In this document: positions 20,281 through 61,899 of the stretch, piece by piece | Layout: each line of letters opens with the position of its first letter | Position numbering within the stretch: position 1 is the first letter of the stretch | Assembly (NCBI RefSeq): GCF_001625215.2 | Contig: NC_030385.2 | Location: forward strand, 36,047,598 to 36,111,597 | Source: Daucus carota subsp. sativus | Taxonomy: Eukaryota > Streptophyta > Magnoliopsida > Apiales > Apiaceae | DNA length: 64,000 nucleotides | Reading direction: 5' to 3' | Translations under genes and position numbers: made by a program | The notes under the pieces: generated by a model | What the model was told of the DNA's origin: nothing | The model's database searches: none | The model's input: only the letters and a program-made list of their open reading frames with translations

Positions 20281-20300
20281 TACATAGATAGATACATAGA

Positions 20301-38101: not shown

Positions 38102-38809
38102 TCAATCATTACTGCTTGCTCCGTGGGCAGGGAGGGATTGGCTCCTACTTGCTACAGCACAGACAACGATGAGAGAGTGTGAAATTAGCAAAATGGTTAA
38201 TAATGGGTTTTTTGATTAATTTTAATCATATTTTATATTTATTCATTCATAAGAAAAGATATTATTTATCTCGTAAATAGCTTTGAATAAAAAGAGTTTA
38301 TGTTTGTTTGTTTTTTTTTTGCCACAGAAAGGATAGATTATATTACTGAATCAAATCCTTACAAGATTAAAATCTGGGTGGACATCCCCACCTCCCATCT
38401 ACGATCAGCTACTAAACAGTTATACCTCGCTAAATAGTGAGCTAGTCTGTTTGCGGATCGTCTAACAAACCTTAACTTAACATTTTGATTCTGTAAAGGA
38501 GTAGTTTATTTAGAATAAATTTCGGTGAGCGAGTTGGTGTGCCTCACAAAATTAGTAGAAACAAATATGTCTTTTTTAAGAAAATGTTAACAAGCGGATG
38601 GGAATTGCGTACGAGAGGATGAAAATACCGCCGAAATGGTAAAACCCATGGGTGGATAGGCGGCGTGCCTGGTAGTTAGCATAGACGACAGGGGAAGCTG
38701 ATGATTGAGAGTGAAGAGCAGTGAGGTGTGGTAAAGAGGCTGTGCCAAGCAGAAGAGTAAGGAGCAACAATACGAAGCTCATCTGAATAAATGATGCAGC
38801 CATACTCAT
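38102..38809 (-). CDS. P1: putative secreted peptide precursor, 76 residues
   Basis: Exon 1 38809-38629 and exon 2 38151-38102, intron GTATTTTC...CTGTAG, together 231 nt. The N-terminus MSMAASFIQMSFVLLLLTLL looks like a signal peptide; a polar segment (HSQSSASP, ARRLS) and the C-terminal motif ASRSQSLPAHGASSND follow. No cysteine pairs and no known domain. The short signal-bearing precursor with one conserved C-terminal motif is typical of plant peptide-hormone genes, but I cannot match it to a named class. The start was chosen because MSMA is common to the copies; an alternative ATG lies two codons on, and in this copy six codons upstream. It lies head to head with F1. P1 is the most diverged copy in the motif. 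Confidence 0.6.
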
Positions 38810-39309
38810 ACAAAGATGTTTAACCATTTCATCATATATATAGGGGATTGGGAAGACACCCCCAAGTATATCTTTTGTGCATAATTAAAAAACAAAAGGT
38901 TGTAGAAAATGGAGTGTAGAAATATTTCTTTGACGCATTAGTGATCAACTGATCGTACACAGAGCCTGTTTGGCACCACCATGCTTCCACTTTTTTTTAT
39001 ATAAAAAAAATAACTTCTACTTTTCTTAATCCGGTTGTGTAAAAAAGCTAGAAACATTTATAATAAGTTGAGAATGTTAATTTTTTTACGGCTTCTACTT
39101 CTTTTCCACAGATTTTTTCTAGTAACTTATAAGTTTTAAATTGTTTCTCACATTTACTACATTTTTTTATTTTAAACAAAAAATCACTTTTTTAATCTCA
39201 CTGCAAAAGCCTTACGGGAGTCCAGTCCAACTCATGTTGCACTTCATTTTGTTTGTGTAATGCGGCCAAGTTCTTGGAACCGACAGCTATTTATGGAGTT
39301 CTACGTCAT

Positions 39310-39600
39310 CACGATGAACTAACTCGTAATCGAGTTGCTGAGTGTGTCAATCCAAGTCCTCCATCGTCGGAAAGATAAAAAAAATTTATCCCGAATATAA
39401 GCAATCAAACAACTCGATTAGTATAAGGCTTTCAGGAGGTGTCCAAAAACAAAATCATGCGGGTTTGGCCACGGCCCAAAGCGGAAAATATGCGGAGTTA
39501 ATGAGTGTTGCGGGGCTCTGATACCACTTGTTGCGTCGGGTGTTTGGTGCATCAATTCTCAACGATTCCAGATCAACCCTCTTCACCTCAACTTGATCAC
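39310..39600. mobile_element. Remnant of a small LTR retroelement with a Met-tRNA primer site
   Basis: On the minus strand, caacaagtggtatcagagcc (plus 39516-39535) is the usual primer site for initiator tRNA-Met next to an LTR end. Adjacent DNA includes ttggccacggcccaaagcgg, common in plant TRIM-like elements. A more decayed version lies at about 60130-60310 in the paralogous position. Boundaries cannot be set. Confidence 0.4.
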
Positions 39601-40364
39601 GAAAATCTTCTCGTTCGGGTTTTAATTCCGGTACATAGAGTCATTTTGAACTTTAAAACATAAAATATTTGTTTGTATAATAAGACAGATTTAAGTTAGA
39701 AAATGAGACAGAAACTTAATTGAAACGAAGCTGATAGTAAGAAATTTTTTAAGCCCTTATTTTTATAATTTCAATACTCAGATAAATAATCTTTTTTTTT
39801 GAAACTAGATATATAATCTTTTAATAAGTCACATATAATATAAAATTATATTTAAACTAGGCATTTTTCAAGTGAAGTTCTCTAATACGCGCGGATAACA
39901 AAAGGTGGCGCAAATTCGCATAATTTCGAACAAATGATCTGTAAATAGAATAAGGATTTCTTTGAACGACTGAATCCGTTGTTCTCTTTATTCACTTGCA
40001 ACTTGCAAGATTGTGTGCTGTTTTGATTCTCGTGTTGCAGAACTAGGATTTTTTTTGAATGATCGAATCAGTGTTAAGCAGCTACCACTCTCATCTAAAA
40101 GTCGTATTATACGCTTTTGTTTGATCCGTTTGTTGTTAAACATGCTTCGGTCCATAAACTTATGTGCATTTTGTTAACTTTTGTCAGCATGTCTTTCATT
40201 TCTTAGTTACTTGAAGCTATCCGAAATTTTGTTGCATATGTCTATTTCTATCCATTAGTACATACACATAAGCTGAAACCCTTGTCTGTAATCCAACATC
40301 TTCATCTCTTGAATTGCTTACCTCTCCGCTTCATTTCGATCTTACATGCGTGTATGCACAGACC

Positions 40365-40471
40365 ATGAGGCCCTAATGGAACTACCAGAAGAACTGCTAA
40401 ATGAGATCTTTCTGAGGATGCCCGCAAGGTCTCTTTTAATATGTAATGTTGTGTTTGGTTGGGGTAAATGA
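40365..40471 (+). pseudogene. F1: truncated F-box gene
   Basis: ATG AGG CCC is followed by a stop because about 14 bases present in the other copies are deleted. The frame recovers from the next ATG (40376) as MELPEELLNEIFLRMPARSL then LICN, the start of an F-box. At about 40446 it runs into unrelated DNA (gttgtgtttggttggggt) that also ends F4. The associated FBA domain is missing. It lies upstream of P2 and head to head with P1. Confidence 0.85.
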
Positions 40472-40660
40472 AACTGGAGGGAATGGAATGAGGTTTGAAC
40501 TATAATTTAGTTGAATATATAATAATTCATTCATTTCCACCATTCCATTACTATCACCCTTAACTAGAGCTTAAATCCTCCATTTTGTCGAGGAATATGC
40601 TCCATTCCTTATCATATCCATTTTTTACCCAAATCTTATCATATCTATTTTTAACATTGG
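40446..40660. repeat. Sequence block truncating F1 (shared with F4)
   Basis: About 215 bp starting gttgtgtttggttggggt and rich in ccattcc / ggaatgg words replaces the rest of the F-box gene. The same junction is at about 60990 in F4. The pattern suggests an inserted MITE-like element followed by deletion; its right end is not defined. Confidence 0.5.
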
Positions 40661-40862
40661 GTTACCCAAGATTATTGTTCAAAATAGGCTGCATTCAGTT
40701 ATAATCAGGTGTACATCTGCATAAGAAATAGAAGATTCCCTGTACATATGATATCTGCATCACATACATAATTATTATGCAAGCACTGGGATTTAACTTC
40801 CTCTAGTAGTCGAATAACCATAAGACGCAGTGGAGGCAGACGATTTGTTATAAGAAATCTCT

Positions 40863-41348
40863 TCAATCATTAACGCTTGCACCGTGGGCAGGTTGTGGTT
40901 CACTCCTGTAAGCTACAGCACAGACAATAAGAGATTCAGTTGACGGGGATGCTTTAAAACTATATTTATTTCCTTATTGTACATAATTTTGTAACTATTT
41001 CGCGAGTTTAAATATAATTCCTCCCTCCCTCCCATCATTATTTTGTATTTGGGCGGGACACGGAGGTTAAGTAAAAGTATGTTATTTTGAAATATGCTAA
41101 CAAATGGATGAAAATTCCGAAAAAGAAAGTGTTAACACGCGGATGGGACATAGGGAGCACCAGAGGATGAAAATACCGTAGAAATGGTGGTTGGATAGGC
41201 GGCGTGCGTGGTAGTCATCATCATGGATAGCTGAAGCTGATGATTGAGAGTGAAGAGCAGTGAGGTGTGGTAAATAGGCTGCCCCAAGCACAAGAGTGAG
41301 GAGCAACCATACGAAGCTCATCTGAATAAATGATACAGCCATACTCAT
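40863..41348 (-). CDS. P2: putative secreted peptide precursor, 73 residues
   Basis: Exon 1 41348-41177, exon 2 40912-40863 (222 nt in frame), donor GTATTTTC, acceptor CTGTAG. The signal-like N-terminus MSMAVSFIQMSFVWLLLTLV leads to HSQSSASAIHDDDYHARRLS and, after the intron, AYRSEPQPAHGASVND at the very C-terminus. Compared with P1 and P3 the middle differs by in-frame indels. The intron contains ctccctccctcccatcatta, which looks like part of an old Stowaway end and recurs in the P3, P4 and P7 introns. A TATA-like tatatatga lies only about 25-30 bp upstream of the ATG. Confidence 0.62.
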
Positions 41349-42031
41349 ACGAAGATGTTGCACAATCTCATCATATATACAGAGTGATGGAAAAGTTAGT
41401 GGATAGCGCCAACCTTTTATTTCCAATTCTATTCTAAAATTAGGAGCTGTATAATTAAGATAATGAAGTCCAACTTAAGGTGGTAGAAAAGTTTTCGTGA
41501 TAAACATGATTCGTTTGACGCGACAGTCGTCCTATAACGAGCATTAGTCCAACTTAAGGTGGTAGAAAAGTTTTCGTGCTAAAAAGGATTCTTTGATGCA
41601 TCAGTGGTAATAGTGGAGTCCAGCTTATGGTGCACTTCATTTTGTTTGTGTAATGCTTGCCAAGTTCTTGGGTGAGGGGGCCGGGGATGTCTAGCTTACA
41701 TCAACAAACTGCTATTTCATGGAGTTTTGCATCATCATGACGATTTTAAACTTACTCAAAATGGAGACGAACGATTTGTTAATAGAATTAAGATTTCTTT
41801 GAATGACCGATTGTGCTATTTTCATTTGCGTGTTCCAGGACAGATTATCTATTTATCTGTAACAAGAAATTTTTTTAAATGATAGAATCTATTGTACGTT
41901 TTTGTTTGATCCATTTGTTGCGAGTAATATGTTTCGGTGAATGAACTTATGTGCATCTTGTTAACTTTTGTCTTCCATTTCTTAGTTACTTGGAGCTATC
42001 CGAATTTTTTTTGCATATGTCTATTTCTATC

Positions 42032-42298
42032 TGATAAACTTATGTGAATAAGTTAGAATAATATGATTAGATGAAGCAAGAACAATGTAAGAGAAAAAGA
42101 AACTCTTGTATTGCTGTTAAGAAGCTTGGTAATTTACATAGTATGAGGTTCTATATATACAGAATAACAACTTGCTCCCTAAGGTTGCTACAGTAGGATG
42201 GTACATGTACAGTGTTGTTACAGTAACCGAGCTTGGGGACCAAGGTTTATGTGGTCATGGCTGTGATGTCATGACAGTGATGTTATATGTTTTTAACA
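42032..42298 (-). repeat. Copia LTR (3' in element orientation)
   Basis: 267 bp, TG...CA ends, matching the other LTR. It adjoins the polypurine tract. Confidence 0.95.
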
Positions 42299-42305
42299 CC
42301 CCCCC

Positions 42306-45300
42306 TCAAACTGAAGATGGTTGTAGAACTAACTTGAGTTTGGAAACAAAAGTTCGGAAACTTCCCGGAGGATGTAATTTGGTGAATATATCTGCAGCAT
42401 TATCAAGACCGGAGACAGCACAAAGGTGAACTGTGCCTTTAGCAACTTGCTGACGAGTGAAATGACAATCGATCTCGATGTGTTTAGTGCGTTCATGAAA
42501 AACGTCATTATGAGCTATGTCCATTGCACTTTTACTATCACAAAATATAGTAGTTGCTGGAGAGTGAGTTACACTCATATCTTCAAGTAACCAACGCAAC
42601 CAGATTAATTCTTGTGTGGTATCTGCAAGGGCTCGATATTCAGATTCAGCACTAGATTTAGATGCAAGGGGTTGCTTCTTACTTCGCCAAGAAATGAGAG
42701 AGTCGCCAAGAAAGAAACAGAATCCCGTGGTAGAACATCTAGTAGTAGGATCACCAGCCCAGTCAGCGTCTGAGTATCCATACAACTCGAGTGAAGAGTT
42801 ATGTGAATAGTGTAAACCTTGAAATATGGTGCCTTTGACATAACGGAGTATGTGGAGGACAGCAGTATAGTGTGGAGTGCGAGGAGCAGCCATGAACTGA
42901 CTGACAATGTGAACTGCGTGAGCAATATCAGGACGAGTGACAGTGAGATAAATTAGGCTCCCAACTAACGGCCGATACAATGTAGGATTTGAAAGTAGTT
43001 CCCCATCCTCGACATTGAGTTTAACCTCGTACTCTAACGGAGTAGAAGCAATCTTAGTGTCACTAATTCCAGATTTTAATAAAAGATCAGATGCATACTT
43101 GACTTGGGAAAGAGTGTAGCCAGTTGGGACTGAAGAAACTTCAAGACCCAAGAAGTAGCTTAATGAACCAAGATCTTTCATTTCAAACTGTTGACTGAGG
43201 AATTGTTTGAGTTCAGAAATACCCGTGATATCATCTCCAGTGATGATCATATCATCCACATATAAGAGAAGTAAAACAATTCCTCGTTCCGATCGTCGAA
43301 GAAAGAGTGCATGATCATATGGACTCGAAGAGAATCCCAGTTGTTGAACTACTTTGCTAAATTTCTCAAACCATGCTCGTGGAGCTTGTTTAAGACCATA
43401 AAGAGCCTTGTTAAGCCTGAACACTTGATTTGGAGAATGTGAGAAACCTGGAGGAGGTTTGAGATAAACTTCCTCATGAAGGTCTCCATTAAGAAAAGCA
43501 TTCTTGACATCCATTTGCCACATATCCCAGTGTTTTGCTGCCCCAACAGCAAGTAAACTACGAACAAATGTGAGACGAGCAACCGGTGCAAAAGTTTCCT
43601 CATAGTCAATGCCATACTCTTGAGTAAAACCTCTAGCAACAAGACGAGCTTTATATCTTTCAATAGAGCCATCAAATTTTGTTTTGATTTTGTAAATCCA
43701 TCGACAACTAACTGCTGTTTTTCCCAGAGGCAGATCAACCAAATCCCATGTGTGAGTTCTGTCCAAAGCTTGGAGTTCTTCTTCCATTGCTTTCTGCCAA
43801 AGTGGATTAACACTAGCCTCTCTATATGTTTGAGGCTCGTGTAAAGACTGTATAGCAGAATAAACATGATAATCAGTAAGACGAATAGAAGGTTGCCTTA
43901 CCCGAGTAGAGCGATGAACAGGTTCTTGTGGAGTTGATGGAATGATAGGTGGCTCTGCATCAGAATCCTCAGACTGAACTTCTGTCAGAGGAACATTAGT
44001 AGTTGGGGATGGTTGAGTGAGCTCAACTGGTGGATTTGTCGGAGATGTGTTTGTGGATGTCAAAGGTTCTGAATATTCATAATTGGGATGTAGATCAACA
44101 AAAGGATCTGTAAAATGAGATATGCTGGTAGAAGTGTCAATTTTAAAATCTGACATAGATGAGAACATTTTGTGTTCCCAAAATGTCACATTACGAGACA
44201 CACGTAGACGTTGGGAGATAGGATCCCAACAACGATATCCTTTTTGACCACTACCATAACCAATGAAGCAACAAAGACGGGAACGTGGCTCTAGTTTTGT
44301 TCTTTCATGGGGAGGAAGAAGAACAAAACATGCAGAACCGAAAACCTTAAGAGAATGATATAAAGGTGATTCTTTATATAATTTTTCATAAGGAGACAAG
44401 TTATCTATAACAGGAGATGGAATCATATTTATTGTATGAACAGCAGTTAATGCAGCTTCCCCCCAAAAGAGTTCTGGACAAGAAGAAGAAATGAGAAGAG
44501 CTCGAATGGTATCTAGGATGTGTCTATGTTTTCGTTCGGCACGACCATTTTGTTGTGATGTGTAAGGACAAGAACTTTGAGCAAGAGTACCATGAGTTGC
44601 CAAAAACTTTGTAAGTTCAGATTCTTTGTATTCTTTTGCATTATCGGCACGAAAGAGTTTGATTTTCTTTTTGAATTGTGTGTCAACCATGGTGGCAAAA
44701 TTTTTGTAAGTATCCCTTAATTCTGAACGATTTTTCAAAATATATATCCAAGTATATCGAGAATAATCATCAACAAATATCACATAGTACCTTGACCCCC
44801 CCATAGTTGGAGTTGGAGATGGTCCCCAAATATCGGAATGTATAAGATCAAAAGTAGCTAATGATTTTTGATAATGGATAGGGAAGGGAAGTACATGTTG
44901 TTTTGCCAGTTTGCATGAAATACAATCTACTGTGTCTACATCAACACTACCTAGATGACCATTAGAAACTAGACTTCGTAAACGAGAAGGTGAAGGATGA
45001 CCTAACCGTGAATGCCAGATACTGGTTGTAGATGAAACAGAACCAACAAGATGAGTGGATGATGTTATTGGGGTAGGTAGGTGAAGGGAAGTGAGCTCAA
45101 ACAACCTTCCACATCTACGGCCTGTCCCAAGAGTTTGTCCTGTCTGAGGATCCTGTACATGACAACCGGAAGAGGTAAAAGTTATGTTAAGTCCCAGATC
45201 ACATAATTGACCAATAGAAATAAGATTGAGTGAAAGATTAGGAACGAAATATGTGTCAGGAAGAGAAAGATCCTCCATGGATACAGTTCCAATATGTGTC

Positions 45301-46412
45301 ACTTTCATGGTTGAACCATCAGCTGTTTGAATATTAGGAAGGCAAGAACTCTCCGTTTTCGTGGTAAATATGGATGAATCATTTGTCATGTGATTGCAAC
45401 ATGCAGAATCAAAATACCAAGAAATACCTGGAGTGATAGAGAATGCGGTAGAAGGAGAGTTATCTTTTTGTAAAAATTGCCTAAGCAAGGATTCGAGCTC
45501 GAGAGCAGACATAGCTGGTGCAGTTCCAGATGTAGGTCCAGAGGTTGTAGTAACGGAAGACTGAGAAAATTTGTTTGGACGGATTGATGACTTTTTCTTG
45601 CAAAATTGAATTGAGTAATTCCCCTTTTGATGGCAATGTTGGCATGTATGACTGCGAAGAGCTACACAATCCTTGGTCACATGTCCATTTTGACGACAGA
45701 ATCTGCAAAAGGGTTTGTCAGAAGTAGGTACCGCAAGGACAGTATCAGCCACCTGACTGATTTTACCGATCCCAAGTCGAGTTTCCTCAGAAATAAGTTC
45801 AGTGAGGGCACTCTCCAAAGAAGGCAGCGGAACACGATGAAGAAGAGCGGCTCTAACTGGTTCAAAATCCTGAGTGAGAGCCATTAGAAACTGGATGAGT
45901 CTTTGCTGATCACGATACGCCTGATAAAGTGTAGCATCCTCCGCATGTAGCCACTTTGGTTCAGATAATGTAAGTTGATCCCAAAGTGCTTGTATTTGAG
46001 ATAGGAAATCAGCTACAGGTTGACCCGATGCTTGTTTCTCCTTGCTTAAAGAGCTCATGATTTGATATTGGTGAGAAAGATCAGATGTAGTATATCGAGA
46101 TGCTAATAAATCCCAAATTTCTTTAGCAGTCTCGTAGTTCCCGAATTGAAGATTTATTTTAGAAACCGAAGAGTTTCTAAAGAATGTAATAGCCTGATGA
46201 TTTTTGACATCCCATTCTTCAATCCGATCTTTGAATTTTGACTCAGTTTCATCATTTTCCTTAGTCGGAATCGGAAAATCCCCATTTACGTACCGCCAAA
46301 TTCTTTTTCCCTTAAGAAAGCTACGCATAGCTTGGGACCAAGACAAGTAGTTGGAGCCATTCAAAATTGTTTGAATCGGAGAACTATTTTCTCTTTCCAT
46401 GTTTGCTAGCAA
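42306..46412 (-). CDS. Copia gag-pol polyprotein, 1368 residues, intact frame
   Basis: One uninterrupted frame. In order: a Gag region (NYLSWSQAMRSFLKGKRIW), a CCHC zinc knuckle CRFCRQNGHVTKDC near residue 240 and an aspartic protease centred on WYFDSACCNHMT. Then comes integrase with its HHCC segment (HSRLGHPSPSRL ... CISCKLAK) and D-D-E core (DIWGP, ADNAKEY, QQNGRAERKHR). Reverse transcriptase follows (YKARLVARGFTQEYGIDYEE, MDVKNAFLNGDL, YVDDMIITG). It ends with RNase H (ADWAGD, SRAESEYRA-type motif SSAESEYRAL, FCDSKSAM). The order protease-integrase-RT defines Ty1/Copia. No stop or frameshift is visible, so it may be mobilisable. Met5 is an alternative start. Confidence 0.96.
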   Translation of the reverse strand: MLANMERENSSPIQTILNGSNYLSWSQAMRSFLKGKRIWRYVNGDFPIPTKENDETESKFKDRIEEWDVKNHQAITFFRNSSVSKINLQFGNYETAKEIWDLLASRYTTSDLSHQYQIMSSLSKEKQASGQPVADFLSQIQALWDQLTLSEPKWLHAEDATLYQAYRDQQRLIQFLMALTQDFEPVRAALLHRVPLPSLESALTELISEETRLGIGKISQVADTVLAVPTSDKPFCRFCRQNGHVTKDCVALRSHTCQHCHQKGNYSIQFCKKKSSIRPNKFSQSSVTTTSGPTSGTAPAMSALELESLLRQFLQKDNSPSTAFSITPGISWYFDSACCNHMTNDSSIFTTKTESSCLPNIQTADGSTMKVTHIGTVSMEDLSLPDTYFVPNLSLNLISIGQLCDLGLNITFTSSGCHVQDPQTGQTLGTGRRCGRLFELTSLHLPTPITSSTHLVGSVSSTTSIWHSRLGHPSPSRLRSLVSNGHLGSVDVDTVDCISCKLAKQHVLPFPIHYQKSLATFDLIHSDIWGPSPTPTMGGSRYYVIFVDDYSRYTWIYILKNRSELRDTYKNFATMVDTQFKKKIKLFRADNAKEYKESELTKFLATHGTLAQSSCPYTSQQNGRAERKHRHILDTIRALLISSSCPELFWGEAALTAVHTINMIPSPVIDNLSPYEKLYKESPLYHSLKVFGSACFVLLPPHERTKLEPRSRLCCFIGYGSGQKGYRCWDPISQRLRVSRNVTFWEHKMFSSMSDFKIDTSTSISHFTDPFVDLHPNYEYSEPLTSTNTSPTNPPVELTQPSPTTNVPLTEVQSEDSDAEPPIIPSTPQEPVHRSTRVRQPSIRLTDYHVYSAIQSLHEPQTYREASVNPLWQKAMEEELQALDRTHTWDLVDLPLGKTAVSCRWIYKIKTKFDGSIERYKARLVARGFTQEYGIDYEETFAPVARLTFVRSLLAVGAAKHWDMWQMDVKNAFLNGDLHEEVYLKPPPGFSHSPNQVFRLNKALYGLKQAPRAWFEKFSKVVQQLGFSSSPYDHALFLRRSERGIVLLLLYVDDMIITGDDITGISELKQFLSQQFEMKDLGSLSYFLGLEVSSVPTGYTLSQVKYASDLLLKSGISDTKIASTPLEYEVKLNVEDGELLSNPTLYRPLVGSLIYLTVTRPDIAHAVHIVSQFMAAPRTPHYTAVLHILRYVKGTIFQGLHYSHNSSLELYGYSDADWAGDPTTRCSTTGFCFFLGDSLISWRSKKQPLASKSSAESEYRALADTTQELIWLRWLLEDMSVTHSPATTIFCDSKSAMDIAHNDVFHERTKHIEIDCHFTRQQVAKGTVHLCAVSGLDNAADIFTKLHPPGSFRTFVSKLKLVLQPSSV

Positions 46413-46662
46413 AGGGGTTAAAGTGAAAATTTTACAACTTTCAGGAACTATATTGTAAAGATTTGGAAATATGGGGACTTATATGTAAGTTAAAAAAAAA
46501 CTGGAAGGTGTAACTCAGAATATTGAAAAAGATCAGGCACCTATTAGAGTGTTTGGCTTGAAAAAGAAAACCTACCCGTTTATTTAAGTGGGCTGATTGG
46601 TGTGGCCCAAATAACCAAAAGAAGCACAGAAGCTATATTGTAGTGCCAGCCCAAAAATAAAA

Positions 46663-47760
46663 CATAGTTGCTAAATACACTTCATATTTGCTTTGTGCAG
46701 TTCGCAGAGATTACAGTTGTGGCCTTCCTAAACTTCTGTGTAATACTATGATACAAAACAAAGTCAACCCTAATTTTTTGTGCACTTTGAACAGGATTAA
46801 TGTAGGCGCACTAACTAATTACTCCATTTAATTATCTTTTTTCAACTATTAAGTGATACATGAATATTATTTAAATTATCAGGCTCTAATGGGTTAAAAT
46901 CCCCGTAACTTAAAATATTACAAAGTTAACACTAATATTTGATATATTATTTTAGTCAAAATAAAAAGTGCTTGGATTTTTTTTTTTAATATAACTTTTA
47001 GTTGGCCTAAACTTTTTAATATGTATTAAGAATTTAGAAAAATAATTTAATTGTATAAATAATCTTTATTCGTATAATTTTCATTTTAACTTTATGTATA
47101 ATCATATAATTTAAATACTTGACTTTATATATAATTTTATCAATGTCTTTATTTTTTTTATCGATGTGTTTAATTTTTTTACTTTGTTCATTCTCATTTA
47201 ATCAAAACAACTTAAAATTTTGAAACTATATTATCACGGCCAATTTCCAATAATATAAAATATTAAAAAGTTAACACTAGTGTTTGATATAATATTTTAG
47301 TCAAAATAAAAAATACTTGATTTTTTTTTATAAAATAATCATTAGCTGGGCTAAAACTTTTATTAAGTATTAAGAATTTAGAAAGATAATTTGTTATATA
47401 TAATTTTTATTTGAATTTATGTTCACTTTGTTTCGATATGTATATATGTATGCACAGTTTATCATAATTGAATTATTAATTCATATCATACTTTTTAAAT
47501 ATTATAATCATTATTTTAGATCCCTTTGAACAAAAATTGTCGGGTTTTGGTTCAAATTTCATGAAGATTATGGATCCTCCTATAAAAGCTAGAGTCGGGG
47601 AATGGAAGTGGCTGAATGTTTTTATTTTTAATATTGAATATTGTCACGTATTTTAATATATTTTTAAAATACATTGTTAAATATAAATTTTAAATGCATT
47701 TTAATGTGTTAAATGTTTCTTCCCTTCTTTAATTTCCAATTCTTTTATTTAAATAAAAAC

Positions 47761-47796
<36 letters not shown>

Positions 47797-48231
47797 ATCC
47801 ATCCAAAAATAACGATTACAAAATATTGTGAAAGTATTTTTTAATAATTTTCTTGTGATTTTAATTATTTTTCTTGTGAATAAAATTTACTTTTTGCACA
47901 AAAATTTGAATGTATTTAAAATTTATAAAAATGAAGAATATAAAATTTGCCAAACTAATAATTACTAAAAAATGTGATAATCATATTTTATAATATATTT
48001 TTGAAAAGAACGTGTGTTTAAGAATTAAAATCTATATATTCTAAAATTTAAAATTAAAAAAATAAGAAACTGTTTGAAATGTGATGTTGTAGCGCAGTCT
48101 TTTAGGTCACATGTAAACACGCCGTAATCAACGCCTATTTATTAGGTCTCACACATTTAATAAGCTAAAGGTCATATATGTAATCTCTGCAAACTGCACA
48201 AAGCAAAAATGAACTGTATTTAGCAACACCC
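46663..48231. mobile_element. hAT-like non-autonomous TIR element nested in the Copia leader
   Basis: The left end (gttgctaaatacacttcata, then tttgctttgtgcagtt, then gcagagattaca) is repeated inverted at the right end over about 50 bp. An eight-base direct repeat aaataaaa flanks it at 46655-46662 and 48232-48239, the hAT duplication length. The interior is very AT-rich with an (at)n run at about 47765 and no coding capacity. It lies between the polyprotein start and the primer-binding site, stretching the leader from roughly 0.85 kb to 2.4 kb. Confidence 0.75.
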
Positions 48232-48817
48232 AAATAAAATAACAAGACTGTAGCCCTAAAAATACGCAGCAGCGTGTATATAGAAAAGCCGAGTGAACTT
48301 ATGCGGCTAAGACAGGATAAAACAAACACACCGAGTGCTTAGATGTAAACAATGGTGGATAATGATGATACTTACAGGGATGAGTGTCGCCTGTCGGAAA
48401 TGGATTTGCCGGACAGAAATGGTGGCTGGCCGGAGGAGATGAGTGAGTTGACTCGGTGAATGCTCTGTAGCGAGTATGATTCAAATGAAAATGGCTGAAG
48501 GTGTTAGTGGTTTGTATTGTGGCTGGTTTGGGCATAAATACAGGTAGTTTGTATAACTAAACAATTTGGCATACAAGCTGTTTGATTTAATGTCGCAGAG
48601 ACTGTTGGTGGATTGGCCAGGCGAATCAGTGAGTCGACATGGGTGAGTGATTGTACTCAGAGAATGATAACTCGAAAGAGGGTGACTCGGTGATTTAATG
48701 GTGCGGAAATGACGAAAAGGCAACAAGATGCTCCGGCAGAAAACTGGGTTTTGACGGAGGATTTGATATGAAGTTGTGGGAACTGGGAAGCTTAGTTGAG
48801 GTATGTCAGGATTGAAC

Positions 48818-48832
48818 CTCGTTCTGATACCA
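48818..48832 (-). other. Copia primer-binding site
   Basis: The minus strand reads tggtatcagaacgag directly beside the 5' LTR; the first ten bases match the complement of the initiator tRNA-Met 3' end. Confidence 0.9.
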
Positions 48833-49099
48833 TGATAAACTTATGTGAATAAGTTAGAATAATATGATTAGATGAAGCAAGAACAATGTAAGAGAAAAAG
48901 AAACTCTTGTATTGCTGTTAAGAAGCTTGGTAATTTACATAGTATGAGGTTCTATATATACAGAATAACAACTTGCTCCCTAAGGTTGCTACAGTAGGAT
49001 GGTACATGTACAGTGTTGTTACAGTAACCGAGCTTGGGGACCAAGGTTTATGTGGTCATGGCTGTGATGTCATGACAGTGATGTTATATGTTTTTAACA
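48833..49099 (-). repeat. Copia LTR (5' in element orientation)
   Basis: 267 bp; matches the left LTR without a visible difference. It acts as promoter of the element and also lies about 115 bp upstream of the F2 start. Confidence 0.95.
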
Positions 49100-49214
49100 C
49101 TATCCATTAGTACATACACATAAGTTGAAACCCTTGTCTGTAATCCAACATCTTCATCTCTTGAATTGCGTACTTCTGCTTCATTTTGATCTTACATGCC
49201 TGTATGCACAGACC

Positions 49215-49690
49215 ATGAGGCCGCGGCAGAGAACCTTAATGGAACTACCAGAAGAACTACTAAATGAGATCTTTCTGAGGACGCCTGCAAGGTCTGTTTT
49301 AATCTGTAAATGTGTCAGTAAGCCCTTCTTGCGTATCATCAGACATCCCGATTTTGTAAACGCCCATCTCAATCGTGTTAAGGAAGTTGGGCGTGATAGA
49401 TCAGAAGCACTAATTTTACATTTTGGAAAGAGTAAGTACAGAGGAAGGAAGTATGTCAAGAGAAAGCAACTAGGCTGCATTCACTATGATCATGTTATGT
49501 TATCTATTGATAATGCGATGATTAATGTATATATGCCATTAAGTCCTCCAGTTTCGTATGTTGGGGAACTTAAAGTTATTGGTTCTTGTATGGACTGATT
49601 TGTGCTGTTATTCAGTTTGATGATGATGATGGTGATGATGATCCTCCTCTCCGTGATCATAAAAATAAGTCCTTGAATTTTAGTATTCAG
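49215..49690 (+). pseudogene. F2: frameshifted, 3'-truncated F-box gene
   Basis: Starts MRPRQRTLMELPEELLNEIF and carries a full F-box (LRTPARSVLICKCVSKPFLR), then continues to VIGSCMD and stop at 49598 (127 residues). F5 reads GSCNGLICAAIQ here: one base is missing in F2 (ttgtatgg against ttgtaatgg), shifting the frame. Homology ends at about 49660 (gatcctcctctccgtgatca), the same breakpoint as F3. The first 127 codons could still yield an F-box domain lacking its substrate-binding FBA region. Copia inserted about 115 bp upstream. Confidence 0.88.
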
Positions 49691-49739
49691 TTGAGATATT
49701 AAAAGATTTTTTTAATTTGTTAAAAATCCGAGGATATTA

Positions 49740-50521: not shown

Positions 50522-51057
50522 TCAATCATTAATGCTTCCACCGTGGGCAGGGCGTGGATCACTCCTGTAAACTACAGCACATACAATAAGAGATTCAGTT
50601 CACGGGGATGCTTTAAAACTATATTCATTTCCTTATTGTATATAGTTTCCTAACTATTTCGTGAGTTTAAATATAATTCTCCCTCCCTCCCATCATTATT
50701 TTGTATTTGGGTGGGACACGGAGGTTAAGCAAAATATAAAATTGGAAGAAAACGCGAGTGAGTCTGGCGGGGCTTGATAAAATTAGTAAAAGTATGTTAT
50801 TTTAAAATATGTTAACAAATGGATGAAAATTCCGAAAAAGAAAGTGTTAACACGCTGATGGGACATAGGGAGCACGAGAGAATGAAAATACCTTGATGGT
50901 GGTTGGATAGGCGGCGTCCATGGTAGTTAGCATAGACAGGGGAAGCTGATGATTGAGAGGGAAGAGCAGTGAGGTGTGGTAAATAGGCTGCCCCAAGCAG
51001 AAGATTGAGGAGCAACAATACGAAGCTCATCTGAATAAATGATGCAGCCATACTCAT
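50522..51057 (-). CDS. P3: putative secreted peptide precursor, 71 residues
   Basis: Exon 1 51057-50892, exon 2 50571-50522 (216 nt in frame), same donor and acceptor sequences as the other copies. Signal-like MSMAASFIQMSFVLLLLNLL, then LPSQSSASPVYANYHGRRLS, then the motif VYRSDPRPAHGGSIND. The stop follows ND as in the other exon-2 copies. An upstream in-frame ATG five codons earlier gives MQHLC. Head to head with F3, 0.84 kb apart. Confidence 0.6.
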
Positions 51058-51895
51058 ACAAAGATGTTGCACAATCTGATCATATATACAGAGTGATAGA
51101 AAAGTTAGTGGATAGAGGCCAACTTTTTTATTTCCAATTCTGTTCTAAAGTTAGGAGCTGTATAATTAAGAAAATGAAGTCCACTTAAGGTGGTAGAAAA
51201 GTTTTCGTGCTAAACATGATTCATTTGAAGCGTCAGTCGTCGTATAACGAGCATTAGTCCAACTTAAGGTGGTAGAAAAGCTTCCGTGCTTGAAAGGATT
51301 CGTTGATGCATCACTGGTCCTATATAGTGGAGTCCAGCTTATGGTGCACTTCATTTTGTTCGTGTAATGCGTCCCAAGTTCTTGTTTGAGGGGGCCGGGG
51401 TTTGTCTTACATCAAACAACTGCTATTTGATGGAGTTTTGCATCATCATGACGATTTTAAACTTACTCAAAATCGAGACGAATGATTTGTATATAGAATT
51501 AAGATTTCTTTGAGTGACTGATTATGCTATTTTGATTTGCGTGTTCCAGGACAGATTATCTGTGCCAAGAAATTATTTTGAATGATCGAATCTGTTGTTC
51601 TGACTTGGCAGAATCAGTGCTGAGCTGCTACCAGACTCATCTGGAAGTCGTATTATACGTTTTTGTTTGATCTATTTGTTGCTTAATATGTTTCGGTGAA
51701 TAAACTTATTAACTTTTGTCTGCAAGTCTTTCATTTCTTAGTTACTTTGAGCTATCCGAAATTTATTGCATATGTCTATTTCTATCCATTAGTATATACA
51801 CATAAGTTAAAACCCTTGTCTGTAATCCAACATCTTCATCTCATGAATTGTCTACTTCTGCTTCATTTCGATCTTACATGCTTGTATGCACAGAC

Positions 51896-52350
51896 CATAA
51901 GGCCGCGGCACAGAACCTTAATGGAACTACCAGAAGAACTACTAAATGAGATCTTTCTGAGGATGCCTGCAAGGCCTCTTTTAATCTGTAAATGTGTCTG
52001 TAATTCTTGCGTATCATCAGACATCCTGATTTTGTAAACACCCATCTCCATTGTGTTAAGGACGTTGGGCACGATAAATCAGAAGCACTCATTCTACATT
52101 TTGGAAAGAGTAAGTACAGAGGAAGGAAGTATATCAAGAGAAAGCAACTAGGCTGCATTCACTATGATCATGTGATGTTATCTATCGATAATGCGTTGAT
52201 TAATGTATATAAGCCATTAAGTCCTCCAGTTCCGTAAGTTGGGGAATTAGTTAAAGTTGGTTCTTGTAATGGATTGATTTGTGCTGTTATTCAGTTTGAT
52301 ATTGATGGTGGTGATGATGATCCTCCTATCCGTGACCACTGATCATAAAA
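51896..52350 (+). pseudogene. F3: F-box gene with lost start codon and frameshift
   Basis: The usual start is ATA (51896-51898) instead of ATG. From the next ATG (51920) the frame reads MELPEELLNEIFLRMPARPL and LICKCVCN. A four-base loss near 52003 (gtaattcttgcg against gtaagccctttttgcg) then shifts it to an early stop. The rest of the homology is readable in another frame to about 52350 and breaks off where F2 does. Confidence 0.9.
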
Positions 52351-52499
52351 AATAAGTCCGGAATATTAGGGTGTATTCAATTGAGATTTTAAATGATTTT
52401 TCTCATTTGTTAAATCCGAGGATATTCAATTCGAATTTTAAAATGTATCACAATTCCGGGATATTCAATTAATTTTTTAAATTATATTAAAAAATCTGG

Positions 52500-53806
52500 G
52501 GGAAAAATCTCAAATTGGTCACTGAAGTGAGGGTGTAGTATCAAAAATTTTATCAAACTTAACGGGATCTCACTCGTACCACTCTAGTAACGAATAATGA
52601 CAAAAATGTTAGTTTGACTTGTTGACCTAACAGAAAGCTGACATGGCAAACAGAGTGACTGACAGAGCGGCTTACGTGGCTTGCGACTCGCATTACAACG
52701 GTGTGAGGATGAAAGATAAAAAAACAAATAAGATTAATTATTATAAAAGCTGTCACTGTATAATCCATCTACTCTTTGTTTAATTGTAAAAAGCATTTGT
52801 ATGTACTATTCCCCGGCTTCAGCTGAATCGTGATCCATCCCACTTCTTTTTGTATTTTTTTCTATAATTTAACATATATTATAATTTTAATATATAATTT
52901 TATAATTTATTTCTAAAATTTTGTATTTTTTGAAAAAATTTAAATGTTAAATCTATTTTTAAAAAGAAAATCTGAAAAATAAAATACATTTTCATAAAAT
53001 ATATTTTCATAAATGATTTTAATTTTTTTTATAAAATATATTTTCATAAATGATTTTAATTTTTTTTCAGAATAAAAATTTAATTATTAATTTTTTAATG
53101 TATTTGGAACCTTTGATAGTAATAAATTATCAAATATATAAAATTTATTAATTTAATAATAAAATATTATAAAATATTTTTTAAATTTATCAATTATATT
53201 TTTATAAAATCAAATTTCAAAAATAAAACATGTCACTAAAAAAGTTTTCAATAATAAAAAAGTTTTCAATAATTAAAACGTATAAATTTTTTACACAACA
53301 GTATAATAAGCTGATTTGAACGTATAAATCTTTGCATTGACTACGATCTATGAATCAAATGAGCAGAATTGTTATTTTATTTTAAGTTCGAGTTAAACTT
53401 TCAAGAGTTAAACTTTCAAGGTTCTTCAAACGGTTTCCGCAGTGTAGGTACAGTTGATCAAGGAAGAAGTACTCGTAATTATTATAAAGTAAAAGAAGGT
53501 GCAATTGAAAGAATTAAGAAGCAGTTTTAAAGAAAATGACCTGGGGGAGAGGAGTGAAACCGGGATGGGGGTATTTAATTATTTTGTAATTTTGTAATAT
53601 TACAATCCACGCAGATGCAGACTGGGATGTTGTCAGCCACTGTGTCCAAGAAACGTTTGTCATGTCAGCTTTCCGTTTGGTCAAACAGTCAAACTAACGG
53701 ATATGTCATTATCCGTTACTAAAGTGGTACGGATGAAACCCCGTTGAGTTCGATATAATTTTTGATATTACAGGCTCACTTCGGTGACCAATTTGAGATT
53801 TTTCCC
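52500..53806. mobile_element. Mutator-like TIR element, 1.3 kb
   Basis: Ends gggaaaaatctcaaattggt and inverse (accaatttgagatttttccc) with an inverted repeat of about 150-200 bp. aaaaatctgg is duplicated at 52490-52499 and 53807-53816. The F2 paralogue at about 49942 has the uninterrupted acaaaatctggttggtattc. The AT-rich interior has no transposase frame, so it is non-autonomous. Confidence 0.88.
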
Positions 53807-55013: not shown

Positions 55014-55161
55014 ACGGAGATGTTGCACAATGCGATCTCATATATACAGAGTGATAGAAATGTTAGTGGATAGCGAATGTTAAAAACACCGTGTATCTTT
55101 ATATTAAAAAAAATTGTGTATTATTGCCTGACCTTTTATCCTATTGTTGACATTCTTGTAG

Positions 55162-57347: not shown

Positions 57348-57826
57348 TCATGATTAAGGTTTTATTCATCGTTCTGAACTCTCGAGTCTGCTCTCTTCTG
57401 TGTTATCTCTTTCGATTACACATATTGGTAACTTGCTTGAATTGTAATGCCATGTTACTGGGAAATTCTTCTCATGAAAAGAATGTTAAAAACACCGTGT
57501 ATCTTTATATTAAAAAAAATTGTGTATTTTACTTCACATTTCCTCAATATTAATATGTGTGCAAAAAAATTAGATCAGGATGTATGTTCTTAACAAGAAC
57601 ATGGACGACTTAAAATCCAATATCAAGAGTTATCGAAATAGAACGGCTTGTGAAATGACGTTACGTCATGATCATCCATCACAGAAGAGGATGAATCGCG
57701 GAAATCTTGAACGTTCTTTCGCATAAATTAGATGTGCTCTCTCTGATTCATAATCTTAATTATTTACGTGTTCATGTTTAGTTTATAATAAAAATCTTGA
57801 AATCTCATGTACATCTCTTTATTATA

Positions 57827-57986
57827 CTCCCTCCGTTGACGCTCTCATAAAATATAGTTCTATAACGTATTTTTAATTTTTTCTTTTTTTGAATGAAAGT
57901 TTAAATTTCAAACTTTTTTTCAGTATTTTTCTTTTAAAAAAAAGTTATATGAAAAATGTGTGTCGAAAAGTAAGGTAAAGAGGGAG
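57827..57986. mobile_element. Degenerate Stowaway-like MITE, second copy
   Basis: Counterpart of 37609-37806 with an internal deletion near its left end; same TA-flanked ctccctccg and agggag ends. Confidence 0.6.
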
Positions 57987-58269
57987 TAACATATAAGGTT
58001 ATTTGTGATCATTTTTAATATTGGGTTACCCAAGATTATTATTCAAAATAGGCTGCATTCAGTTAATGAGTTATATATGTGCATAAGAAATAGAACAGAA
58101 AGCAAGCAGACCCCTGTACATATGATATAGAGAATTATTATGCAAGCACTGGGATGCAATTACACTGCAGACCTCAAATTATATATAGGCAGACAATTTG
58201 TTACAAGAAATTGTTTGAAATGCAGAAACATGAGAAGAAGCCATTGATGCAAGGTGATGTGAAATCTCT

Positions 58270-58738
58270 TCAATCATTAATGCTTGCTCCGTGGGCAGGG
58301 CGTGGTTCACTCGGGTTAACCGCACCTACACGGGATGCTATAAAACTATATTTATTTCCTTATTGTATATAATTAATTCGTAACTATATTTATTTTTTAT
58401 TACATATAATTTCGTAACTATTTTATATTTGAGTGGAACACTGAGGTTAAGCAAAATTAAAAATCGGACGTGAGTGAGTCAATGGGACTTGATAAAATTA
58501 GTAAAAGTATGCTATGTTGAAATATGTTAACAAATGGATGAAAATTTCGAAAAAGAAAGTGTTAACACGAGGATGAGACATAGGAAGCACGAGAGACTGA
58601 AAATACCTAGACTAAGACAGGTGAAGCTGATGATTGAGAGTGAAGAGCAGTGAGGTGCGGTAAATAGGCTGCCCCAAGCACAAGAGCGAGGAGCAACTAT
58701 ACAAAGCTCGTCTGAATAAATGATGCAGCCATACTCAT
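58270..58738 (-). pseudogene. P5: peptide gene copy broken by a stop codon
   Basis: Exon 1 58738-58607, exon 2 58325-58270. Translation begins MSMAASFIQTSFV and stops at TAG where the other copies have TTG. A deletion later in exon 1 removes the codons for the NYHARRL block and breaks the frame. Exon 2 still encodes a clean AVNPSEPRPAHGASIND tail with stop. The exon-1 length (132) is the only one in the family that is not 1 modulo 3. Confidence 0.8.
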
Positions 58739-59401
58739 ACAAAGATGTTTACCCACGTGGTCATATAAATTGAAACGGAGGAAGTGTACATTTATCAACA
58801 AACATGTTTGTAAATGCTTTTCAAATAATAATATGTGATCATGCGTTTTTTGATTTATTTTAAATTATATTTTTCATTCATAAAAAAAGATATTATTTCT
58901 CATATTGACTTTCTGTGAGTTTGTTTTCGAGTAGATAATTTTGAATAAAAAAATTTTTATAATAAATCTATCTTTGTTTGAGAGTAGTTTGTCTTGTAGT
59001 AGAATACATTAGAGTAACGCTCTATAGTTTGTGGTGAATTTCCCGTAAAACATGTTATAGATTTATAGTTGAAAAAAATGACTCTCATCATCAATATAAT
59101 TATATATATATTTACAAAATGATAGGGAATTAAGTCATGCTGGAATGATAAAAAGTATCAAAAACAATTTGTCACTCCCAATTATCTCTATCTACAATTA
59201 TTAAAATATAGTATAAATTTCATAAGTATTTGGTGACCTTAAATATGATTCTCCATTCCTCCCACCAAGCGAGTTGGTGTGCCTCACAAAATTAGTAAAA
59301 ACAAATATGTTTTTTCTAAAAAATGTAACTAACAAACAACAAGGGTACGAAAGTGTTAGCAAGCGGATGGTTATTGAGGAAGTACGAGAGGATGAAAATA
59401 C

Positions 59402-59573
59402 CGTATTCATGATGGTTGCATAAGCGGCGTGCATGGTAGTTAGCATAGTCGACAGGGGAAGCTGATGATTGAGAGTGAAGAGCAGTGAAGTGTGGTAAAT
59501 AGGCTGCCCCAAGCACAAGAGTGAGGAGCAACAATACGAAGCTCATCTGAATAAATGATGCAGCCATACTCAT
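59402..59573 (-). CDS. P6: peptide gene, exon 1 only
   Basis: Intact first exon MSMAASFIQMSFVLLLLTLV ... HSQSSASPVDYANYHARRLC and NHHEY, with the standard GTATTTTC donor at its end. No exon-2 motif lies between here and P5. The nearest compatible acceptor in the same phase is that of P5 (58325), about 1.1 kb downstream on the minus strand. Splicing over the dead P5 exon 1 could give a complete precursor ending PAHGASIND (inference). Otherwise the frame reads through the donor and ends about 28 codons later in untranslated-looking sequence. Confidence 0.45.
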
Positions 59574-60889
59574 ACAAAGATGTTTAACCATTTCATCATA
59601 TCCCCCCAAGTATATCTTGCGTATAACTATAAAATAAAAGGTTGTAGAAAATGGAGTGTAGAAAATTTTCAAAAGGTTGCGGGGAAGATCCATTTACTTT
59701 GAGTAAATGGAGTGTGAGCCGGGAATTAAAAATCCAAAAGGTTTAGAAAACTTTGTGTTCAAAATGATTTCTTTGCCGCATTAGTGTCATACACAGCGCC
59801 TGTTTGGCACCACCTTGCTTCCACTTTTTTTATGGAAAAAATAACATGTTTTTCTTGACCCATTTGTATAAATAAATTAGAAATATTTATAAAAAGTTGG
59901 AATCTTGGGTTTTTTTTCTACTTTTTTTCCAAAAATTTTAATAATTTATAAATCTTAAACTTGCTTCTCACTTATACTCTATTTTTTTATTTTAATTAAC
60001 AAGTCACTTCTTTTAATCTCAGCCTCACACGCTTACAGAAGTCCAACTTATGTTGCACTTCATTTTGTCTGTGTAATGCGGCCAAGTTCTCGGAACCAAC
60101 TGCTATTTTACGGAGTTCAACGTTATTATGATGATTTTAAACTAACTCATAATCGACCTGTTAGCGGGGTTGTCAACCCAATTCCCGCATGAAAAAGATA
60201 AAAAAAATTTGTTTTGAATATAAGCAATCAAACAACTCCATCAGTATAAACCTTTCACAAGGTGTGAGCGTGGAGTTAGTGGATGTTGCGAGGCACCCAA
60301 CGCTCTTGTATACAAACACCTCAACCTTATATACAAACACCTCAACTTGATAATTACCATCTTCTCTTATTTTGGATAGAGTTCCACAATTAATATTTTA
60401 TGAAGAATCCGATTATCCAAATTCTCTAAAATATCTTCTTCAATTAGGATTCTTCACTTATTAAGAAATTCAGGAACAGATCCCAACACAAGCGTCAAAA
60501 CTTGCTCCATGTGGATTCTAAATGTGTATCACCTCTTGTTATTGCCCATTAGGCCATTACATGGACAAATATGGATATCAACGGTATATTTTTGGATTTT
60601 TTTGAATGATCGAATCAGTGTTAAGCAGCTACCACTCTCATCTAAAAGTCGTAATATACACTTTTGTTTGATCCGTTTGTTGTTAAACATGCTTCGGTGA
60701 ATAAACTTATGTGCATTTTGTTAACTTTTGTCAGCATGTCTTTCATTTCTTAGTTACTTAAAGCTATCCGAAATTTTGTTGCATATGTCTATTTCTATCC
60801 ATTAGTACATACACATAAGCTGAAACCCTTGTCTGTAATCCAACATCTTCATCTCTTGAATTGCTTACCTCTGCTTCATTTCGATCTTC

Positions 60890-61036
60890 ATGAGGCCGCG
60901 TCAGAGAACCTTAATGGAACTACCAGAAGAACTGCTAAATGAGATCTTTCTGAGGATGCCTGCAAGGTCTCTTTTAATATGTAATGTTGTGTTTGGTTGG
61001 GGTGAACGAAAACGAAGGGAATGGAATGAGATTTGA
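60890..61036 (+). pseudogene. F4: truncated F-box gene
   Basis: MRPRQRTLMELPEELLNEIF then LRMPARSLLICN, then NVVFGWGERKRREWNEI from the same foreign block that ends F1; stop at 61034-61036. Only 32 residues of F-box remain, with no FBA domain. The 5' leader lacks ten or so bases seen in the other copies just before the ATG. It lies head to head with P6. Confidence 0.88.
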
Positions 61037-61416
61037 ACTATAATTTAGTTGAATATATAATAATTTCATTCCTTCCATCATTCCATTCATATCACCCTTA
61101 ACTAGTTTAAAGCCTCCATTTTGTGAAAGAATGCTGCATTCCTTATAATATCTATTTTCTACCCAAATCTTATCATATCTGTTTTTAACATTGGGTTACC
61201 CAAGATTATTGTTCAAACTTCAAAATAGGCTGCATTCAGTTATAATCAGGTGTACATCTGCATATATAAGAAACAGAACAGAAAGAAGATTCCCTGTACA
61301 TATGATATCTGCATCACATACATAATTATTATGCAAGCACTGGGATTCAACTTCCTCTACTAGTCGAATAACCATAAGATGCAGTGGAGGCAGACGATTT
61401 GTTACAAGAAATCTCT

Positions 61417-61899
61417 TCAATCATTAACGCTTGCACCGTGGGCAGGGTGTGGTTCACTCCTGTAAGCTCCTGCACAAACAATAAGAGATTCAGTTCACGG
61501 GGATTGCTTTAAAACTATATTTATATCCTTATTGTATATAATTTCATAACTTTATCCTGAGTTTAAATATAATTCTCCCTCCCTCCCATCATTATTTTGT
61601 ATTTGGGTGGGACACGGAGGTTAAGTTAAAGTATGTTGTATTGAAATATGCTAACAAATGGATGAAAATTCCGAAAAAGAAAGTGTTAACACGCGGATGG
61701 GACATAGGGAGCACCAGAGGATGAAAATACCGTAGAAGTGGTGGGTGGATAGGCGGCGTGCGTGGTAGTTAGCATAGACAGGGGAAGCTGATGATTCAGA
61801 GTGAAGAGCAGTGAGGTGCGGTAAATAGGCTGCCCCAAGCAGAAGAGTGAGGAGCAACAATACGAAGCTCGTCTGAATAAATGATGCAGCCATACTCAT
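61417..61899 (-). CDS. P7: putative secreted peptide precursor, 73 residues
   Basis: Exon 1 61899-61731, exon 2 61469-61417 (222 nt in frame), acceptor here tgtgcag, one codon upstream of the usual site. MSMAASFIQTSFVLLLLTLL, HSESSASPVYANYHARRLST, then GAYRSEPHPAHGASVND. It is the only intact peptide gene paired with an intact F-box gene (F5 starts 1.24 kb away on the other strand), so it is the best copy to test. Confidence 0.63.

What the first reader, a model, noticed from the sequence alone, without database searches (positions are those of the whole stretch)
38102..61899. Tandem family of tiny two-exon genes encoding putative secreted peptides
Seven minus-strand copies (P1-P7) share a signal-like N-terminus (MSMAASFIQ then a leucine-rich core), a variable polar middle and a C-terminal motif in a second exon. 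Exon-1 lengths from the MSMA/MCMA start are 181, 172, 166, 160, 172 and 169 nt for the unbroken copies: all differ, yet all equal 1 modulo 3. Exon-2 lengths are 50, 50, 50, 50, 56 and 53: all equal 2 modulo 3. Indels that keep the frame in both exons argue for translation. I know of no named plant peptide class with this motif.
Basis: partly seen in the sequence, partly recalled or inferred. Interest (0 to 1): 0.92.

Follow-up and report, generated by a model that had tools for sequence, protein, structure and literature searches.

The report
Carrot-only tandem family of secreted peptides
A single spot in the carrot genome holds six apparently intact, fast-changing mini-genes that probably make short secreted peptides of a kind not yet described, though no expression or function has been shown.

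Summary
On the minus strand lie seven exon-1 and six exon-2 copies. One exon 1 (P5) is dead and lies inside P6's intron, leaving six candidate genes. The window is carrot: P7, spliced as predicted, is identical to an annotated hypothetical Daucus carota protein, the only relative found among 5.8 billion proteins. No further copy was found in the 441-Mb own genome.

For coding: exons of 46-56% GC against 30-40% around them; four of four exon-1 indels in multiples of three, against 13 of 61 nearby; P6's exon 1 far closer to its relatives than its intron. Against: substitutions look neutral (49 nonsynonymous to 22 synonymous), and six open frames survive by chance in 0.14 of simulations. The array looks like a gene-conversion mosaic.

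Best reading: a carrot-lineage family of small signal-peptide precursors, built like PROSCOOP arrays but not PROSCOOPs, releasing a C-terminal peptide near RSEPxPAHGASxND. Expression, secretion and processing are inferred, not shown.

The parts
61731..61899 (-). P7 exon 1 (169 nt): MSMAASFIQ..., signal-like stretch and variable middle
   Evidence: annotated protein P0001 identical; an upstream in-frame ATG adds MVKHLC
61417..61469 (-). P7 exon 2 (53 nt): GAYRSEPHPAHGASVND stop
   Evidence: junction fits P0001
59402..59573 (-). P6 exon 1 (172 nt)
   Evidence: 5-16% from the other five usable exon-1 copies; adjoining intron 23-31% from P2, P3, P4 and P7
58607..58738 (-). P5 exon 1 (132 nt), dead: in-frame TAG at codon 14 and 40 nt shorter than P6's; lies inside the P6 intron
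   Evidence: two stops flagged in the genome search
58270..58325 (-). Exon 2 that P6 would use (56 nt): ...PSEPRPAHGASIND stop; usual acceptor lost, AG upstream used instead
   Evidence: its downstream flank pairs with that of P1
54854..55013 (-). P4 exon 1 (160 nt), starts MCMA; lacks the RRL residues
54412..54461 (-). P4 exon 2 (50 nt): ARRSEPRPAHGASIND stop
50892..51057 (-). P3 exon 1 (166 nt)
50522..50571 (-). P3 exon 2 (50 nt): VYRSDPRPAHGGSIND stop
41177..41348 (-). P2 exon 1 (172 nt)
40863..40912 (-). P2 exon 2 (50 nt): AYRSEPQPAHGASVND stop
38629..38809 (-). P1 exon 1 (181 nt)
38102..38151 (-). P1 exon 2 (50 nt): ASRSQSLPAHGASSND stop, the most divergent C-terminus
60597..63565 (.). 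P7 repeat unit: downstream block, gene, MITE-like insert, F-box-fragment block
   Evidence: self-comparison; MITE arms
42032..49100 (-). Ty1/copia LTR element that splits the P2 unit (not part of the peptide genes)
   Evidence: identical 268-nt LTRs; Pfam RVT_2, rve, gag; CTATC repeat on both sides

Best explanation
A carrot-lineage tandem family of six two-exon genes plus one dead exon, encoding 69-76 aa secreted peptide precursors. Exon 1 would give a signal peptide (to about residue 24-38) and a variable polar pro-region; exon 2 gives a conserved C-terminal tail whose majority form is RS(E/D)PxPAHG(A/G)S(V/I)ND (P1 and P6 depart from it at some places). The likely mechanism: the precursor enters the secretory pathway, a protease cuts in the pro-region (an RRL stretch is present in 5 of 6), and a roughly 14-17-residue C-terminal peptide is released and perceived by a surface receptor as a local stress or growth signal. 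The array grows by unequal exchange of repeat units, some of which carry F-box fragments, and copies seem to trade segments by gene conversion. Shown: gene anatomy, copy number found, one annotated spliced product, indel frame, composition, mosaic site pattern. Inferred: transcription, secretion, cleavage, receptor, role.
For: Independent annotation of the P7 splice at 100% over 73 of 73 residues, from a record whose contig length (46,645,765) differs from that of the window's contig (47,556,597). Exon GC 46-56% against 30-40% in introns and flanks. 4 of 4 exon-1 indels are multiples of three against 13 of 61 nearby, P5 left out. P6 exon 1 differs from P2, P3 and P7 by 5-11% while its adjoining intron differs by 23-31% (p 9e-7 to 8e-6 against upstream plus intron), and from P4 by 22 of 160 against 31 of 128 (p 0.019). 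Donor sequence identical in 6 of 6. Hydrophobic core followed by a small-residue cut site, GAA in 5 and GTA in P1. Invariant S61, P65, A66, H67, G68, S70, N72, D73 in 6 of 6. No cysteine in the tail of 5 of 6, as in PROSCOOP precursors (PMC6382344, passages).
Against: No purifying selection seen at codon level: dN/dS 0.83 pooled; 49 nonsynonymous to 22 synonymous changes, p 0.17 against neutral; variable sites spread evenly over codon positions (20, 21, 19). Neutral substitution alone leaves all six frames open in 0.136 of 5000 simulations. For P1, exon 1 is better conserved than its edges at p below 0.05 in only 2 of 4 comparisons. In the recent group P2/P3/P4/P7 the exons are no more conserved than the intron: signal part 11/102, C-terminal part 8/51, intron 26/260; the middle part, 15/54, is more variable (p 0.001). 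Exon-only gene conversion would mimic the P6 contrast. Only one of six copies was found in the protein collection. The signal stretch has no basic residue before the hydrophobic core unless the upstream ATG is used, which exists in P1, P6 and P7 only. No RNA or peptide data were available.
Confidence: 0.55

Rival explanations
1. A decaying family: one or two copies (P7 above all) are working peptide genes, the others are recent duplicates under relaxed constraint that have not yet collected stops.
For: dN/dS near 1; P5 dead; P6 lacks its own exon 2 and the usual acceptor; only P7 was found in the protein collection; neutral chance of six open frames 0.136.
Against: All four exon-1 indels of the six copies keep the frame; donor sequence identical in 6 of 6.
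Confidence: 0.25
2. Diversifying selection: the copies are an immune-type peptide set in which pro-region and peptide positions are selected to change.
For: Middle part varies at 15/54 sites against intron 26/260, p 0.001 (18/58 and p 2e-4 on the other alignment); in P2/P3/P4/P7 all 8 C-terminal changes are nonsynonymous.
Against: 8 of 8 is not significant (p 0.21), nor is 13 nonsynonymous to 4 synonymous in the middle part (p 1.0); the middle part has two haplotypes (AI.DDDY and PV.YANY) shared across copies, which conversion explains as well.
Confidence: 0.12
3. No protein: a noncoding tandem repeat whose open frame is an accident of recent duplication and conversion.
For: Neutral-looking substitutions; intron as conserved as exon in the recent group.
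Against: Frame-keeping indels and GC contrast, P6 exon-intron contrast, annotated splice product.
Confidence: 0.08

Closest known systems
PROSCOOP/SCOOP (serine-rich endogenous peptides, perceived by MIK2)
   Same: Small precursors (72-117 aa there, 69-76 here), two or three exons, signal peptide, no cysteine, tandem arrays with transposon remains, restricted to one plant lineage (PMC6382344, passages). A serine-rich SxSSxS stretch follows the signal part here in 6 of 6.
   Different: The shared C-terminal tail lacks SxS in 5 of 6 copies. PROSCOOPs were found only in Brassicales (PMC11331138, passages), whereas carrot is in Apiales. Here the conserved tail is the very C-terminus, while PMC6382344 (passage) says the PROSCOOP motifs are not at the C-terminal extremity.
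Proline-rich CLE, PIP, CEP, IDA and CTNIP peptides
   Same: Signal peptide, variable middle, short conserved C-terminal peptide with proline (class features recalled).
   Different: The core PSGP named for these classes in PMC11331138 (passage) is absent in 6 of 6 tails.
Sulfated peptides RGF, PSY, CIF
   Same: Short secreted precursors; an Asp-Tyr pair (recalled as the sulfation motif) occurs in P2, P4 and P6.
   Different: The Asp-Tyr pair is missing in P1, P3 and P7 and is not in the conserved tail.

Membership tests
PROSCOOP | SxS motif in the active peptide (PMC11331138, passages) | tested here: not met
   C-terminal tail: SxS in 1 of 6 (P1 only). SxS does occur in 6 of 6 beside the signal part, a different place; which part is the active peptide is not known.
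PROSCOOP | Found only in Brassicales (PMC11331138, passages) | tested here: not met
   The window is carrot, Apiales.
PROSCOOP | Perceived by MIK2 | not testable with these tools
   Needs a binding or ROS assay.
CLE/PIP/CEP/IDA/CTNIP | PSGP-type core in the conserved peptide (PMC11331138, passage) | tested here: not met
   0 of 6 tails; no Pfam match above cut-off for the 3 of 6 precursors scanned.
RGF/PSY/CIF sulfated peptides | Sulfated-tyrosine (Asp-Tyr) motif in the peptide | tested here: not met
   Asp-Tyr in 3 of 6, outside the conserved tail.
Cysteine-rich peptides | Even number of cysteines in the mature part (PMC6382344, passage) | tested here: not met
   0 cysteines in 5 of 6 tails, one in P6.
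Small secreted peptide precursor (general class) | N-terminal signal peptide | tested here: inconclusive
   Hydropathy peak 2.5-2.9 with small-residue cut sites in 6 of 6; but 16 of 165 open ATG starts in the window (the array's own not set apart) reach 2.8, and no SignalP was available.
Small secreted peptide precursor (general class) | Transcribed, secreted and processed | not testable with these tools
   No RNA-seq or peptidome data held.

The most novel reading that the evidence does not exclude
A new, carrot-lineage phytocytokine-like family with its own C-terminal motif (majority form RS(E/D)PxPAHGxSxND). It would have arisen in one locus independently of Brassicales SCOOPs and reached the same architecture: tandem array, short two-exon precursors, fast-changing pro-region, TE-rich setting. 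It would be perceived by a carrot receptor not yet known.
Probability: 0.3. Interest if true: 0.68.

Novelty: new member of a known kind. Interest (0 to 1): 0.45.

Why it matters
If the genes are expressed, carrot has a lineage-restricted peptide signal that annotation has mostly missed (one of six copies was found in the protein collection). Together with PROSCOOPs it would show that local duplication can build peptide families anew in separate plant orders, and it would give a defined ligand with which to seek a receptor in a vegetable crop.

Tried and rejected
Other copies: none found outside the window by P7 protein (7 places), exon-2 DNA (9 pieces at 6 units), exon-1 DNA (7 places) or P4 protein at E up to 10 (10 rows: 9 in the array, one chance-level row on contig 8 at E 0.47 with a stop). 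The tool scores only its best candidates.

Relatives: three protein searches gave P0001 alone (1 of 1, 1 of 1522 and 1 of 1406 candidates); they reach only relatives that share exact five-residue words. Pfam on 3 of 6 precursors (best E 0.063, below cut-off) and solved structures with the P7 tail only gave nothing. Celery, coriander or other Apiaceae DNA was not searched: no collection on hand holds it.

Transposon origin: in the P4 region no inverted repeats, in the P3 region one 17-nt pair, in the P7 region the MITE-like pair and six imperfect pairs of 15-22 nt (73-93%), taken as chance. The P1, P2 and P6 units were not tested this way. Rejected on that ground, not excluded.

Purifying selection: looked for and not found at codon level.

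Structure: AlphaFold2 on P0001 alone gave helices 2-43 and 46-62 and a low-confidence tail (mean pLDDT 70); not informative, no fold search made.

Papers: the letters PAHGAS, PAHGGS and SEPRPAHG gave one unrelated paper. Seven further searches gave no title about such a carrot family among the rows listed: 4 of 4, 0, 20 of 131, 6 of 6, 15 of 114, 10 of 1,230, 12 of 393. PMC6382344, PMC11331138, PMC11756074 and PMC11901849 were seen as passages only; the last, on coriander orphan genes, had no occurrence of 'secreted'.

A resemblance of GASV to maize Zip1 came from memory and was dropped.
Full report
What is there. The window lies on contig 5 (36,047,598-36,111,597) of a 441-Mb, 11-contig genome. 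Copy P7, spliced as predicted, equals hypothetical protein ACET3Z_019379 of Daucus carota over all 73 residues; the annotated protein starts six codons earlier (MVKHLC). That record's contig has 46,645,765 bases and the window's contig 47,556,597, so it appears to be another carrot assembly. The species call rests on this one identical protein.

Anatomy. Seven exon-1 copies and six exon-2 copies lie on the minus strand. The intron starts GTATTTTCAT in 6 of 6 and ends GTAG, or GCAG in P7; the usual acceptor of P6 is lost and an AG further upstream stands in. Introns are 261-477 nt, and 1076 nt in P6, because the dead exon P5 lies in it. The flanks bear this out: the upstream side of P1 pairs with that of P6 (38883-39442 with 59724-60265, 77%), and the downstream side of P1 pairs with that of P5's exon 2 (37296-38132 with 57513-58300, 91%). 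So P1 and the P6-exon-1/P5-exon-2 gene appear to be counterparts, and P5 exon 1 a later insert by local exchange (inference). Likewise P2 and its downstream block pair with those of P7 (40050-41399 with 60597-61950, 91%).

Single locus. P7 protein, exon-1 DNA and exon-2 DNA find 7, 7 and 6 places in the genome, all in this array (three further pieces are downstream bits of the same units). The P4 protein at E up to 10 adds one chance-level row elsewhere, at E 0.47 with a stop. The tool scores only its best candidates, so far-off relatives may be missed.

Evidence for coding. First, composition: exon 1 46-51% GC, exon 2 50-56%, introns 30-36%, flanks 33-40%. Second, indels: the four length differences in exon 1 of the six usable copies (3, 9, 3 and 9 nt, parsed by eye from the codon alignment) are all multiples of three. 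In my less redundant choice of alignments outside the exons (which includes F-box fragments) 13 of 61 are, and in the full set 16 of 84, so 4 of 4 has a chance of about 0.002 or 0.0013. P5, left out as dead, is 40 nt shorter; counting it gives 4 of 5, about 0.009. Third, contrast: exon 1 of P6 differs from P2, P3, P4 and P7 by 18/172, 9/166, 22/160 and 14/169, while the adjoining intron differs by 64/208, 30/128, 31/128 and 62/206 (p 4.5e-6, 7.6e-6, 0.019 and 8.9e-7 for exon 1 against upstream plus intron). The same test with P1 gives p 0.14, 0.0082, 0.21 and 0.048. Gene conversion confined to exon 1 would give the same contrast, and the lack of synonymous differences in the signal part (0 over about 24 sites between P6 and P2 or P3) points that way. 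Fourth, the annotated P7 protein, whose own evidence is not known.

Evidence against, or neutral. Pooled dN/dS is 0.83 over 15 non-independent pairs (signal part 0.85, middle 0.85, C-terminal part 0.68). A minimal-change count gives 49 nonsynonymous to 22 synonymous changes, not different from 0.76 nonsynonymous (p 0.17). Variable sites fall evenly on codon positions (20, 21, 19). Simulated neutral substitution, without indels, keeps six frames open in 0.136 of 5000 runs. In P2/P3/P4/P7 the intron varies at 26 of 260 sites, the signal part at 11 of 102, the middle at 15 of 54 and the C-terminal part at 8 of 51. Only the middle differs from the intron (p 0.001). Site patterns conflict: five middle-part sites group P2 with P4 against P3 with P7, while three middle-part, three intron and two exon-2 sites group P3 with P4 against P2 with P7. 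The copies therefore look like mosaics, and pairwise rates must be read with care.

Product. Precursors are 69-76 aa. A hydrophobic core within residues 10-23 (12-residue hydropathy 2.5-2.9) is followed by a small-residue cut site, GAA in five and GTA in P1. 16 of 165 open ATG starts in the window reach 2.8, the array's own not set apart, so hydropathy alone is weak evidence. Invariant in 6 of 6: S34, S36, S37, A38, S39 beside the signal part, and S61, P65, A66, H67, G68, S70, N72, D73 in the tail. An RRL stretch lies between them in 5 of 6 (missing in P4); reading it as a protease site rests on recalled knowledge of plant subtilases. AlphaFold2 without relatives gives two helices and an unordered tail, which neither helps nor hurts.

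Comparison. The nearest kind is PROSCOOP: 14 Arabidopsis genes with two or three exons, 72-117 aa, signal peptide, no cysteine, tandem clusters with transposon remains, one plant lineage (PMC6382344, passages). Membership fails: the tail lacks SxS in 5 of 6, and PROSCOOPs were found only in Brassicales (PMC11331138, passages). An SxSSxS stretch does stand beside the signal part in 6 of 6, so a serine-rich peptide from there is not excluded. The PSGP core named in that paper for CLE, PIP, CEP, IDA and CTNIP is absent in 6 of 6 tails, and Asp-Tyr, recalled as the sulfation motif, is present in 3 of 6 only, outside the tail. So it may work like these peptides without belonging to any of them.

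Verdict. A real, single-locus tandem family, carrot-restricted as far as these collections show, probably coding (P7 most likely) and probably secreted. Signal function is a reasoned guess. Interest is moderate: lineage-specific secreted-peptide arrays are a known kind, this one is new, and the lack of codon-level constraint leaves decay or rapid change open.

Noticed in passing
window 42032-49100: Young Ty1/copia LTR element: 268-nt LTRs 100% identical, flanked by a CTATC repeat, one 1368-aa open frame with gag, integrase and RT domains; it splits the P2 repeat unit.
   Followed up: partly
window 62022-62418: MITE-like insert with perfect 25-nt inverted ends upstream of P7; by self-comparison it appears absent from the matching P2 and P3 upstream blocks.
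   Followed up: partly
window 49125-49598, 51696-52037, about 63047-63565 (+): F-box gene fragments head-to-head with P2, P3 and P7, duplicated along with them; Pfam F-box matched in 2 of the 4 frames scanned, at the first two places. Whether any is intact was not settled.
   Followed up: partly
window 52500-52651 and 53655-53806: Inverted repeat, 152-nt arms 86% complementary, 1003 nt apart, between P3 and P4.
   Followed up: no
window 12208-14434 and 18436-20282: Two clusters of local direct repeats with no match to the peptide-gene array in the self-comparison.
   Followed up: no
window 32237-33751 (+), 22050-22625 (+), 35731-35805 (-): Neighbours: a 504-aa Vps62-family frame, an NTF2-domain frame and tRNA-Lys(CTT).
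   Followed up: no
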